The notes under the pieces were generated by a model. It made no database searches. It saw only the letters and a program-made list of their open reading frames with translations, and was not told the origin of the DNA. This document shows, one piece after another, positions 25,062 to 28,775 of a stretch of 39,108 bases of DNA; positions within the stretch are counted from its first letter, which is position 1, and each line of letters opens with the position of its first letter. This DNA comes from Candidatus Neoruminococcus faecicola (GTDB lineage: Bacteria > Bacillota > Clostridia > Oscillospirales > Ruminococcaceae), in assembly GCA_904398325.1 (NCBI GenBank), contig CAJFPC010000005.1:1-39108 (forward strand), given 5' to 3'. Made by a program: the position numbers and the translations under genes.

Positions 25062-25927
25062 CGTTTCACCCTCCGGAACAGGCCCCGTTTCTTTTCGCCG
25101 GGTTGATCTGTCTCTTCACCCGTCAGGCGGCTGACCAGCTCCTTGGCCAGCGTTTCCTTATTAAAGCCCCGCTGGATTTCACCATTATTGGCGATGGAGA
25201 TGGTGCCGTTTTCCTCCGATACCACCACCACCACCGCATCCGATACCTCGCTGACCCCCAGGGCCGCCCGGTGGCGGGTGCCCATTTCCCGGCTGATGGT
25301 CTGGTTATCTGACAAGGGCAGGAAGCACCCCGCCGCGTAAACCTTGTTGTCGCGGATGATCATGGCACCGTCATGCAGCGGCGAATTGGGGAAAAAGATA
25401 TTCCGAATCAGCTCCGGCGTGGGCTGGGCGTCCACCACTGTGCCGGTCTTGACGATTTCGCCCAGCATGGTGGTGCGCTCGATAACGATTAAGGCGCCGA
25501 TTTTCTGGGCGCTCATGGCGGCGCAGCTCTCGCTGACCACCTGGATCATCGACTGGGTGCGCACGCTGCGGGCCATTTTTTCCTCGTCGTTGGCGCCGAA
25601 AAAGGCAAACTGCCGCCCGCTGAATTTCACCCGGCCCACCTGCTCCAGCACCCGGCGGAGCTCCGGCTGGAACACTACCACCAGGGAAATCAGCCCTACC
25701 TGCAGGATGTTGCGCATGATAAAGCTGATGGTATTCAGGTGGATCTGCTCGGCAATGGCGTAGATGACAATAACCGCCAGGATGCCCTTGACCAGCTGGG
25801 CGGCGCGGGTCTCCCGCACCAGCTTGATGATGTGATAGACAATATAAGCCACCACCGCCACATCGAGGATGTCGGTGGGCGATATGGTGCGGAATATGCT
25901 CTGCAGACGGTCAAAAATCGCAATCAC
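25058..25927 (-). CDS. cdaA: Membrane diadenylate cyclase CdaA (c-di-AMP synthase)
   Basis: A 289-residue enzyme that joins two ATP into c-di-AMP. Three N-terminal membrane helices (~18-85, ending QPELRRVLEQVG) precede the DAC domain, with catalytic D186-G187-A188 (LHDGAM) and R218-H219-R220 (GTRHRAALG). The C-terminal tail is basic (KKRGLFRRVKR). The start is GTG 25927 with AGGAAGGA upstream. Promoter at 25963-25990. c-di-AMP controls potassium and osmolyte uptake and wall homeostasis; it is usually essential. Confidence 0.97.
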   Translation of the reverse strand: MIAIFDRLQSIFRTISPTDILDVAVVAYIVYHIIKLVRETRAAQLVKGILAVIVIYAIAEQIHLNTISFIMRNILQVGLISLVVVFQPELRRVLEQVGRVKFSGRQFAFFGANDEEKMARSVRTQSMIQVVSESCAAMSAQKIGALIVIERTTMLGEIVKTGTVVDAQPTPELIRNIFFPNSPLHDGAMIIRDNKVYAAGCFLPLSDNQTISREMGTRHRAALGVSEVSDAVVVVVSEENGTISIANNGEIQRGFNKETLAKELVSRLTGEETDQPGEKKRGLFRRVKR

Positions 25928-25962
25928 GGCAGCCGGTCCTTCCTGTTACTTTCTTCCTATCC

Positions 25963-25990
25963 ATTTTAGCATAACTATCCGGCAATTCAA
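25963..25990 (-). promoter_or_regulatory. Extended -10 promoter of cdaA-cdaR
   Basis: Minus strand TTGAAT (25990-25985), 16-base spacer, TAAAAT (25968-25963) with TG upstream; about 30 bases ahead of the cdaA start. Confidence 0.65.
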
Positions 25991-26044
25991 ACCGTTTTCC
26001 AAAAGTTTTTTCTTCTTTTCACCAGACTTTTCCACCCGGCCTGC

Positions 26045-27181
26045 TCAAAAGCGCTCCCGCACGCAGGCGAGGAAGCTTTCCACCTCCTCCGGCCGGTTGT
26101 AGCTGCCAAAGCTTGCCCGCACCAGCCCTTCCTTCAGGGTGCCCAGGGTGTGATGCGCCAAATAGGAACAGTGCAGCCCGGCCCGCACGGCGATGCCTTC
26201 TTCGGCCAGGCGTGCGGCGGCCTCTTCGCTGGGCAGCCCCTCGGCTGCAAAGGAGACCACCGGCAGAGCGCGGCCATAGGCCGGCGTTTCGCTGTAAAGG
26301 CGAATTCCTTTTATCTCGGATAAGCCCTCATACAGACGCGCCGCCAGGGCCAGCTGCCGCTCATAAAGGTGTCCCGGGCCCTTGTCACGCACATAGCCAA
26401 GCCCCGCCCCCAGCCCCAGGATGCCCAGGGTATTGACGGTGCCGCTTTCCAGCCGGTCCGGCATGAGAGAGGGCTGGGCCCTTTCCTGCGACTGGCTGCC
26501 GGTTCCGCCTTCCATCAGGGTATTCATCCGCGCACCGTGGGGCGTGATCAGCACCCCCGTCCCGGAAGGGCCGTACAGCCCCTTGTGCCCCGGCAGACAG
26601 AGGAAATCGATGAAATCCTTTTTCATGGAAATGGGCAGCAGCCCCGCGCTCTGGGCGCCATCCACCAAAAAGAGGCAGCCCTTCAGCCGCGCCAGCTGCC
26701 CCAGCCGCCGGATCGGCTGCACCCGCCCGGTGACATTGGAGCCGTGGGCGGCCACAATCAGCCGGGTGTTGCCGCGCAGCAGGCGGCGGTAGTTTTCCAC
26801 CGTCTCATCCGGGTCTGAGGAGGTGGGCGCCACATTGTATTCGATCAGCCCCTGCTGGGCCAGCTTGTGCAGCGGGCGCAGTACGGAATTATGCTCCAGA
26901 TCCGACACAATCACATGATCCCCCGCGCTCAGGCAGCCCTTGACCGCCAGATTGAGGGCATGGGTGCAATTCTGGGTGAACACCACCTCCTCCGGGCAGG
27001 AAGCGTCAAAAAAGTCCGCCAGCGCCTGCCGGCAGCTGTAGACCTGCTCCGCCGTGGCCATCGCCATGGGATAGCCGCTGCGCCCGGGGTTGGCGCCGTA
27101 ATGGAAAAACCCCCGCACCATCGCCCGGATAACCGCCGGCGGTTTGGGATAGGTGGTGGCTGCGTTGTCAAGATAAATCAT
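26045..27181 (-). CDS. Cysteine desulfurase-family (class V aminotransferase fold) enzyme
   Basis: A 378-residue PLP enzyme. YLDNAATTYPKP is the classic start; TQNCTHALNLAV, Asp174 (LVDGAQSAG) and the PLP lysine Lys200 (PGHKGLYG) are intact. The catalytic cysteine is Cys338 in RAGLHCSYLAHH. It looks like the clostridial cysteine-desulfurase subgroup rather than IscS/NifS; whether it works on cysteine or selenocysteine cannot be told. The gene overlaps the upstream DUF3343 gene by 14 bases, which ties the two together. No IscU or SufBCD nearby, so sulfur or selenium delivery to another acceptor is inferred. Confidence 0.9.
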   Translation of the reverse strand: MIYLDNAATTYPKPPAVIRAMVRGFFHYGANPGRSGYPMAMATAEQVYSCRQALADFFDASCPEEVVFTQNCTHALNLAVKGCLSAGDHVIVSDLEHNSVLRPLHKLAQQGLIEYNVAPTSSDPDETVENYRRLLRGNTRLIVAAHGSNVTGRVQPIRRLGQLARLKGCLFLVDGAQSAGLLPISMKKDFIDFLCLPGHKGLYGPSGTGVLITPHGARMNTLMEGGTGSQSQERAQPSLMPDRLESGTVNTLGILGLGAGLGYVRDKGPGHLYERQLALAARLYEGLSEIKGIRLYSETPAYGRALPVVSFAAEGLPSEEAAARLAEEGIAVRAGLHCSYLAHHTLGTLKEGLVRASFGSYNRPEEVESFLACVRERF

Positions 27182-27413
27182 CGCGCCGCCCTCCTTCCTC
27201 GCGGGCCTTCACCTGGATGCCCGCCTCCTGGATGAGCCGCTGCGCCCGGTCCGCCTCTTGGGTCAGGACCAGGCCGTAGCCGCAGCCAAAGCGCTCCAGA
27301 TCCCGCCGGTTGCGCACCAGCTGGCAGGGGATGCCCGCCTGCCGCAGCAGCTGCTGGGCGCGCATGGCGTGGGTGACAGAGCCGACAAATAAAATAACAT
27401 GATCTTCTGCCAT
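27168..27413 (-). CDS. DUF3343 protein (putative Se/S carrier)
   Basis: An 81-residue protein of the DUF3343 family, described as putative selenium/sulfur carrier-like. The fold is a small alpha/beta unit: VILFVGSVTHAMRAQQLLRQ, then IPCQLV (Cys30) and FGCGYGLVL (Cys44). The second cysteine, in a CG turn, is the likely persulfide or selenide site. ATG 27413 is 7 bases from GGGAGG; the longer frame from 27431 would start inside the hairpin. It overlaps the cysteine desulfurase gene, a sensible donor for a carrier. Its ribosome binding site is buried in a hairpin (27421-27450). Confidence 0.85.
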   Translation of the reverse strand: MAEDHVILFVGSVTHAMRAQQLLRQAGIPCQLVRNRRDLERFGCGYGLVLTQEADRAQRLIQEAGIQVKAREEGGRRDDLS

Positions 27414-27420
27414 AAAAATA

Positions 27421-27450
27421 CCTCCCGTCAAGCATAGGCTATGCGGGAGG
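27421..27450 (-). promoter_or_regulatory. Hairpin sequestering the DUF3343 ribosome binding site
   Basis: On the minus transcript CCTCCCG (27450-27444) pairs with CGGGAGG (27427-27421), which contains the whole Shine-Dalgarno; inside, CATA pairs with TATG. It is followed by TATTTTT and the ATG. Could block translation, act as an attenuator, or both. Confidence 0.55.
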
Positions 27451-27534
27451 AAAAAGGCGGGTTATCCCGGCCGGGGCCGGGCTCCGGCAGCCCCAAGGCG
27501 GGAATCTGCCGGGCAGGACAGGGCCTTTTGCGGC

Positions 27535-27569
27535 AAAAAAAATCTTCCGGCCCAAAATGTGCCGGAAGA
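27535..27569 (-). terminator. Intrinsic terminator of ispF
   Basis: Perfect 9-bp stem TCTTCCGGC (27569-27561) / GCCGGAAGA (27551-27543), then eight T. It lies 14 bases after the ispF stop. Confidence 0.92.
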
Positions 27570-27582
27570 ATGCGCTGTGAAA

Positions 27583-28071
27583 TTATTTTTCTCCATCTGC
27601 CAGCGGCAGCAGCAGGCAGACCGCATGGGCGGCCATTCCCTCGCCGCTGCCGGTGAACCCCAGCCCCTCCTCGGTGGTGGCCTTCACATTCACCTGTTCG
27701 GGGGCGATGCGGCAGTCCGCAGCAATGCGGCAGCGCATTTCCTCCAGATAGGGCATCAGCTTGGGGCGCTGGGCCAGGATGGTGCAGTCCAGGTTGCCCA
27801 CCTGCCAGCCAGCCCGGTGCAGCTTTTCCGCCACCTGCCGCAGCAGCTGCCGGCTGTCGGCCCCGCGGTAGCATTCCTCCGTATCCGGGAAGTGCCGGCC
27901 GATATCCCCCAGCCCGGCGGCGCCCAGCATGCTGTCCATCACCGCGTGCAGCAGCACGTCGGCGTCGGAGTGACCGTCCAGCCCCCTCTCATAGGGGATC
28001 TCCACCCCGCCCAGGATCAGCTTCCGGCCCGGCGCCAGCCGGTGCACATCATAGCCGTGACCGATTCTCAC
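27583..28071 (-). CDS. ispF: 2-C-methyl-D-erythritol 2,4-cyclodiphosphate synthase IspF
   Basis: A 162-residue trimeric enzyme of the non-mevalonate isoprenoid pathway, forming MEcPP from CDP-ME-2-phosphate. Metal ligands are in GYDVHRL and [26 protein letters not shown] and [16 protein letters not shown] are the substrate and CMP contacts. The start is GTG 28071, whose GTGA overlaps the ispD stop by 4 bases; a longer ATG start at 28089 would lie in the ribosome site GGAGGAGGA. It ends in a strong terminator. Confidence 0.96.
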
Positions 28072-28775
28072 GCTTCTTCCTCCTCCCATCGGGCCGCCAG
28101 CAGCGCCTGTGCCAGGCGCACATCCTGCGGCGCGGTCAGTTTCAGGTTTTCCGGGGAACCCTCGGTGAGATGCACCGCAAAGCCCGCGGCCTCCATCAGC
28201 TGGCAGTCGTCGGTATAATCCCGCCCCTGCTGCCCTGCCAGGGCGCAGGCCTTCAGATACGCCTGGGCGGCAAAGACCTGCGGCGTCTGAATGAGATAAA
28301 GCCCCTGCCGGTCCACCGTCGCGCAGATCATCCCATCCCGGACGCGCTTGACCGTATCCCGCACCGGCACCCCCAGCGCCGCCGCCCCAAAGCGGAAGGC
28401 ATCCTCCGTCACGCGCTGGATCTCCTCCGGCGTCACCAGCGGGCGCGCCCCGTCATGGACACAGTAAAAATCCGCCTCGCCGGCAGCCATCACGCCCGCC
28501 AGCACCGACGCCTGGCGGCTGTCCGCCCCGCGCACCACCGACCGGACCTTCTTTAGGCCGCAGTCCCGCACCAGGCGCAATAGGTCCGGGATCGCCTCCT
28601 CCCGGGCCGCCACCACCACACGGTCCACCGCCGGGCAGCACTCAAAGGCCCGCAGCGTGTGCAGGATCACCGGCATCCCGCCCAAGGGCATCAGCTGCTT
28701 ATCCCAGCCCATGCGGCGGGAAACGCCCGCCGCCGCAATCACCGCCGCCACCAGGGGCTTTCGTTCCACTGCCAA
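28068..28775 (-). CDS. ispD: 2-C-methyl-D-erythritol 4-phosphate cytidylyltransferase IspD
   Basis: A 235-residue enzyme of the same pathway, attaching CMP to MEP. The nucleotidyltransferase glycine-rich loop is [20 protein letters not shown]; further marks are [24 protein letters not shown] (Asp for metal), [15 protein letters not shown] and [11 protein letters not shown], followed by [14 protein letters not shown]. The start is TTG 28775, 7 bases from AGGAGG. Directly before it is a long hairpin with a weak T run. Translationally coupled to ispF. Confidence 0.96.

What the first reader, a model, noticed from the sequence alone, without database searches (positions are those of the whole stretch)
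27414..27534. Structured leader with a hairpin that buries the DUF3343/cysteine desulfurase ribosome site
The 120-base gap between the ispF terminator and the DUF3343 start holds several GC stems: CCGGCAG/CTGCCGG, CCCGGC/GCCGGG, and last CCTCCCG pairing with CGGGAGG, which fully covers the Shine-Dalgarno. A TATTTTT run follows the last stem. I see no sigma-A promoter in the gap. The two genes form a sulfur/selenium-handling pair, so a cis-acting RNA switch, thermometer or attenuator is a reasonable guess. It fits no riboswitch class that I recognise.
Basis: partly seen in the sequence, partly recalled or inferred. Interest (0 to 1): 0.6.

Follow-up and report, generated by a model that had tools for sequence, protein, structure and literature searches.

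The report
Spore promoter nested inside ribosome-site hairpin
The hairpin that hides the ribosome-binding site is real, but it is wrapped around a promoter of the type bacteria use late in making spores, so messages that run in from the neighbouring gene should be silent and only spore-specific messages should be translated, as is known for phage T4 lysozyme and proposed for the Bacillus sigG gene.

Summary
On the minus strand CCTCCCG (27450-27444) pairs with CGGGAGG (27427-27421) and buries the Shine-Dalgarno (SD): local fold z -4.1, SD unpaired with probability 0.003. Rfam has no match. The switch, thermometer or attenuator reading is not what the comparative evidence favours. The hairpin's apex is CATAGCCTA, 17 nt after AC: a mother-cell sporulation promoter of the sigma-K type. 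It is the best-scoring such site on either strand of the window. 78 of 83 DUF3343 leaders across the taxonomic family score above the 99% level of control DNA. Leaders of dpaA (sigma-K regulon) look alike; leaders of spoIIIAA (sigma-E) do not. A relative lacking all three spore markers tested keeps the genes but has no such promoter. The predicted start lies in or next to the 3' arm, so the spore transcript lacks the 5' arm (SD about 33-52% open), whereas read-through from ispF carries the whole lock. Similar SD-complementary stems, in different sequences, are over-represented just upstream of this promoter when it lies within 50 nt of the start codon. The architecture matches phage T4 gene e and B. 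subtilis sigG. The gene pair's place in late sporulation appears new; the lock's function is inferred, not shown.

The parts
27461..27462 (-). -35 element 'AC' (context GGATAACCC) of the sigma-K-type promoter
   Evidence: AC-N17-CATA match; AC at this offset emerges from 83 leaders aligned only on CATA
27435..27443 (-). -10 element CATAGCCTA, preceded by G (27444); forms the apex of the hairpin
   Evidence: Leave-one-out matrix score 14.2, best on either strand of the window
27428..27430 (-). Predicted transcription start (13-15 nt after the C of CATA), at the edge of the 3' arm
   Evidence: Inferred from typical -10 to +1 spacing; not measured
27444..27450 (-). 5' arm of the hairpin, CCTCCCG, in the promoter spacer; present only in read-through RNA
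27421..27427 (-). 3' arm CGGGAGG, containing the SD GGGAGG
   Evidence: unpaired probability 0.003 with the 5' arm, 0.33-0.52 without
27535..27568 (-). Intrinsic terminator after ispF; limits read-through
   Evidence: Sequence: 8-bp stem CTTCCGGC/GCCGGAAG followed by T-run
27168..27413 (-). DUF3343 / Se_S_carrier protein, 81 aa
   Evidence: Pfam PF11823, E 4.7e-12
26045..27181 (-). Cysteine desulfurase family protein (am_tr_V_EF2568 type), 378 aa, overlapping DUF3343 by 14 nt
   Evidence: TIGR01977 above cut-off; not SclA, 293 bits against a 525 cut-off
27583..28089 (-). ispF, co-directional upstream gene and source of possible read-through
   Evidence: Pfam YgbB PF02542

Best explanation
The gap holds a late mother-cell sporulation promoter (sigma-K type: AC-N17-gCATAnnnTA) that drives DUF3343 and the desulfurase. 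The promoter is built into an SD-sequestering hairpin. Vegetative polymerase that reads past the ispF terminator makes an RNA with both arms; the SD is locked and the pair is not translated. During sporulation sigma-K polymerase starts at the edge of the 3' arm; that RNA lacks the 5' arm, the SD is exposed and the pair is made. Shown by computation: hairpin, promoter motif and its conservation, sigma-K-like rather than sigma-E-like character, SD accessibility difference, over-representation of such stems across relatives. Inferred: the start site, dependence on sigma-K, existence of read-through RNA, and that the hairpin silences it. My estimates: sporulation promoter 0.88, sigma-K rather than sigma-E 0.75, hairpin acting as an anti-read-through lock 0.5.
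For: Aligning 83 DUF3343 leaders on CATA alone gives gCATAnnATR and an unselected AC/ACAA at -19/-18. 78 of 83 leaders score above the 99% point of control DNA; the window site scores 14.2 leave-one-out and is the window's best. dpaA leaders (sigma-K in C. difficile, PMC3789822) have median score 12.1, including 14.0 for this genome's own dpaA; spoIIIAA leaders have median 5.5 with a TTCTA -35. The same paper states that sigma-E and sigma-K share -10 and differ at -35 (ATA versus AC). The genome has spoIIGA, sigE, sigG, most of sigK, spoIVA, spoIIIAA and dpaA. The pair co-occurs with spoIVA (95 of 128 versus 6 of 20 genomes, p 1.8e-4); G040, 94% complete without spoIVA, spoIIIAA or dpaA, keeps the pair but scores -2.4. 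SD lock 0.003 versus 0.33-0.52. Stem over-representation: stems of 8 bp or more in 8 leaders against 1.4 expected; mean z -1.04 only in the window around the promoter; 41% of near leaders in the best 5% of GC-matched mismatches, p 1.4e-4.
Against: No transcription data. The window's own stem is only borderline (5%) against GC-matched controls. In ensemble folds of long RNAs the extra SD protection over shuffled 5' sequence is modest (0.32 versus 0.38, near class). The near/far split at 50 nt was chosen after looking at the data. No enrichment in leaders with more distant promoters. Having ispF upstream does not clearly change the signal. The sigK copy seen lacks its last ~17-20 residues near a contig end, so a working sigma-K here is unproven.
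Confidence: 0.62

Rival explanations
1. Only the sporulation promoter is functional; the hairpin is a by-product of a C-rich spacer facing a G-rich SD across a near-palindromic -10 box in a GC-rich genome.
For: The promoter motif is far more conserved than any stem; the window's stem is at the 5% level against GC-matched mismatches; ensemble accessibility effect is small.
Against: Across relatives SD-complementary stems near the promoter exceed permutation, shuffle and GC-matched controls, and upstream and coding windows show no such excess.
Confidence: 0.3
2. A cis-acting RNA switch (riboswitch, thermometer) sensing sulfur, selenium or temperature.
For: SD-sequestering hairpin and further GC stems in the 120-nt leader; sulfur/selenium-related genes.
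Against: No Rfam match; no shared fold or pairing register among relatives; leader length and sequence between -10 and start vary from 24 to over 100 nt; the native transcript would lack the 5' arm.
Confidence: 0.04
3. The last hairpin plus TATTTTT acts as an intrinsic terminator or attenuator on read-through RNA rather than, or besides, hiding the SD.
For: A 7-bp GC-rich stem directly before a U-rich stretch.
Against: The U tract is interrupted (UAUUUUUAUG) and runs into the start codon; relatives with SD-pairing stems mostly lack a U run there; a full terminator already follows ispF.
Confidence: 0.1
4. The promoter is used by sigma-E (early mother cell) instead of sigma-K.
For: Both factors share the CATA -10 (PMC3789822); the window also has GGATAAC near the -35.
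Against: AC at the sigma-K spacing dominates in 83 leaders; spoIIIAA leaders from the same family have a different -35 and lower scores while dpaA leaders match.
Confidence: 0.2

Closest known systems
Bacteriophage T4 gene e (lysozyme), soc, 49 and I-TevI leaders (PMC3014915)
   Same: A hairpin hides the SD in longer early transcripts; a late promoter whose sequence encodes the hairpin's 5' strand makes a short, well-translated RNA.
   Different: Phage late sigma gp55 rather than a sporulation sigma; there the structure, start sites and 100-fold effect were measured.
Bacillus subtilis spoIIIG (sigG) read-through hairpin (PMC5942855 and its reference 52)
   Same: Sporulation gene downstream of a co-directional gene; a hairpin proposed to block translation of read-through RNA cannot form in RNA from the gene's own promoter.
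   Different: Forespore promoter (sigma-F/G), 20+ bp hairpin, regulatory gene; here a sigma-K-type promoter, 7-bp outer stem and a metabolic gene pair.
Sigma-K-dependent promoters of Clostridioides difficile and B. subtilis (e.g. dpaA)
   Same: AC -35, CATA -10.
   Different: DUF3343-desulfurase was not found named as a target in the papers searched.
DUF3343 / Se_S_carrier (PF11823) near Sec lyase or cysteine desulfurase genes (PMC5322559)
   Same: Same small protein next to a desulfurase-family enzyme.
   Different: Earlier work linked it to selenium use; no selD above cut-off was found here, and the link to sporulation is new as far as the library shows.

Membership tests
Sigma-K-type mother-cell promoter | -10 gCATAnnnTA | tested here: met
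   GCATAGCCTA at 27444-27435; window's best matrix score
Sigma-K-type mother-cell promoter | -35 AC about 17 nt before CATA, unlike sigma-E | tested here: met
   AC at 27462-27461; dpaA and spoIIIAA controls
Sigma-K-type mother-cell promoter | Organism encodes a working SigK | tested here: inconclusive
   SigK hit above the PRK05803 cut-off but ORF ends ...GISRSYV* close to a contig end
Sigma-K-type mother-cell promoter | Expression depends on sigK | not testable with these tools
   needs mutants or transcriptomes
Read-through lock (T4 gene e / sigG type) | Hairpin hides SD in the long RNA | tested here: met
   predicted unpaired probability 0.003
Read-through lock (T4 gene e / sigG type) | Gene's own promoter overlaps the 5' arm so its RNA lacks it | tested here: met
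   -10 box directly follows the 5' arm; start site itself is predicted, not mapped
Read-through lock (T4 gene e / sigG type) | Co-directional upstream gene | tested here: met
   ispD-ispF upstream, same strand; ispF upstream in 41 of 83 relatives
Read-through lock (T4 gene e / sigG type) | Read-through RNA exists and is translated poorly | not testable with these tools
   needs RNA mapping and reporters
Riboswitch | Conserved aptamer or covarying fold; Rfam class | tested here: not met
   No Rfam match; no shared pairing register
RNA thermometer | Known thermometer family or conserved SD-pairing motif | tested here: not met
   No Rfam match; melting behaviour itself not testable
Intrinsic attenuator | GC hairpin followed by a continuous U tract | tested here: inconclusive
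   U tract interrupted and overlapping the start codon

The most novel reading that the evidence does not exclude
Spore-forming gut Clostridia repeatedly evolve promoter-embedded, SD-complementary stems as translation locks on late mother-cell genes, each with its own sequence, and a DUF3343-desulfurase sulfur/selenium module is a previously unrecognised part of the late sporulation programme across the family.
Probability: 0.35. Interest if true: 0.62.

Novelty: new member of a known kind. Interest (0 to 1): 0.48.

Why it matters
It gives a testable role (late sporulation, mother cell) to an uncharacterised but widely linked protein pair, DUF3343 and a cysteine desulfurase, so far discussed mainly in connection with selenium. 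It also suggests that translation locks against read-through, known from T4 and proposed for sigG, may recur at many developmental promoters that sit just downstream of vegetative genes. Because each copy has its own sequence, such locks are invisible to family-based RNA searches.

Tried and rejected
Rfam at gathering and permissive thresholds: nothing above chance. Palindrome GCATAGCCTATGC as a dispersed regulator site: only one exact copy in the genome and not conserved in relatives. spoIVA as a promoter control: mostly no isolated promoter, an upstream gene ends close by. Search at class level: 27 of 29 best desulfurase relatives in other families lack DUF3343 directly upstream by my profile, so the test could not be extended. 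Same-genus relatives: none held. A fixed-register covariation test found no shared register. ispF presence as a predictor of the stem: no clear effect.

Full report
Check of the observation. That hairpin covers the SD of the DUF3343 gene (ATG at 27413). The 141-nt leader folds at -62.7 kcal/mol, z -3.1; the hairpin alone at -17 kcal/mol, z -4.1. Rfam gives nothing.

Genes. The first gene is a Se_S_carrier / DUF3343 protein (PF11823). The second is a cysteine desulfurase family protein (TIGR01977) that does not reach the SclA selenocysteine-lyase cut-off. Upstream are ispD and ispF; downstream are cdaA and a YbbR-domain protein. cdaA appears to have its own sigma-A-like promoter (TTGAAT/TAAAAT, sequence). 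selD is not found above cut-off in this 92% complete genome.

What is conserved. In 83 of the 93 desulfurase loci examined (90 from the same taxonomic family, which the tool leaves unnamed, plus 3 distant ones without it) a DUF3343 frame lies directly upstream. I aligned their leaders only on CATA. This gave gCATAnnATR, and an unselected second element with A and C at -19 and -18, often followed by AA, emerged at a fixed distance. 78 of 83 leaders score above the 99% point of control DNA taken 200-800 nt upstream. The window site, scored with itself left out, reaches 14.2, the best value on either strand of the 39-kb window; the runner-up (13.3) is the reverse reading of the same palindrome.

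Which sigma factor. In C. difficile sigma-E and sigma-K share the -10 and differ at -35, ATA versus AC (PMC3789822). Leaders of spoIIIAA (a sigma-E gene; my own knowledge) from the same family score a median 5.5 and show TTCTA in the -35 region. Leaders of dpaA (sigma-K in C. difficile) score a median 12.1, and this genome's own dpaA scores 14.0. The DUF3343 promoter therefore looks like sigma-K. The genome has SpoIIGA, SigE, SigG and a SigK-type gene, SpoIVA, SpoIIIAA and DpaA. The SigK frame ends early near a contig end.

Link with sporulation. A strong desulfurase relative is present in 95 of 128 genomes with spoIVA and 6 of 20 without (Fisher p 1.8e-4). Of the six, four have spoIIIAA and all four keep the promoter. 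A fifth (G075) has a dpaA match but no DUF3343 frame in the fetched stretch. The sixth, G040, is 94% complete and lacks spoIVA, spoIIIAA and dpaA in all three searches; it keeps the pair but has almost the lowest promoter score of all, -2.4. Relatedness between genomes was not corrected for.

How the hairpin and promoter fit together. The 5' arm occupies the last 7 nt of the promoter spacer; the -10 box is the apex; the predicted start (27430-27428) is at the edge of the 3' arm. RNA reading in from ispF has the SD unpaired with probability 0.003. RNA from the nested promoter has 0.33 to 0.52, depending on the start nucleotide.

Is the lock more than chance? Across the 83 leaders, stems of 8 or more Watson-Crick pairs between the region from 40 nt before the -10 box to its end and the SD occur in 8, against 1.4 after permuting partners. 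Against shuffled upstream sequence, leaders whose -10 lies within 50 nt of the start codon have mean z -1.04 and 9 of 36 below -2; windows further upstream and in the coding region show no excess. Against mismatched leaders of similar GC content, 41% of 37 near leaders fall in the best 5% (Wilcoxon p 1.4e-4), far leaders do not, and the window's leader is at 5%. Examples: CCCTTCC/GGAAGGG (L024), GCATCCCCT/AGGGGATGC (L038), CCTCCTTTT/AAAAGGAGG (L046), TTCCCCTA/TAGGGGAA (L026), AAAATCACCTT/AAGGTGATTTT (L072). They share no register, so this is recurrent complementarity, not a conserved RNA fold. In ensemble folding the extra protection over shuffled sequence is small (0.32 versus 0.38) and absent for dpaA and spoIIIAA as groups. 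The 50-nt split was made after seeing the data. I therefore hold the lock at about 0.5 and the promoter at about 0.88.

Comparison with the known. T4 gene e has the same architecture: a hairpin in early read-through RNA, and late promoters in the region encoding its 5' strand (PMC3014915). The B. [quoted passage not shown] The present case works like these. It is a new instance with a different sigma factor and different genes, and the assignment of a DUF3343-desulfurase pair to late sporulation was not found in the papers searched.

Verdict. The hairpin is real. The RNA-switch guess is replaced by a sporulation promoter nested in an SD-sequestering hairpin, most likely a guard against read-through. 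Transcription start, sigma-K dependence and the translational effect remain to be measured.

Noticed in passing
L051 (G000:C76) 1471-2112: The sigK-type frame ends ...GISRSYV then TAG, short of the last ~17-20 residues of region 4.2, with a hairpin terminator and the contig end about 70 nt later. It could be a skin-like junction, an assembly break or gene decay.
   Followed up: partly
window 27433, + strand: Because the -10 box is palindromic the reverse strand also scores as a sigma-K-like promoter (13.3), pointing antisense into ispF; probably a by-product.
   Followed up: no
L208 (dpaA leader of G088): GAAAACGGAGGAA near the dpaA SD pairs with TTCCTTCGTTTTC in the promoter spacer except for one mismatch (SD open 0.07 versus 0.50 shuffled): a second sigma-K-type gene with the same lock-like layout.
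   Followed up: partly
L162-L191 (spoIIIAA leaders): Many spoIIIAA leaders in this family share a GTTCTA element about 22 nt before CATA, often with GGACA in the spacer: a sigma-E-type consensus distinct from that of dpaA and DUF3343.
   Followed up: partly
L124 (G040): A genome without spoIVA, spoIIIAA or dpaA keeps DUF3343-desulfurase without the promoter motif, suggesting a non-sporulation use of the pair there.
   Followed up: partly
window 25900-26060, minus strand: cdaA, downstream of the desulfurase, has a good sigma-A-like promoter (TTGAAT-N17-TAAAAT), so the sporulation unit sits between two vegetative units.
   Followed up: no
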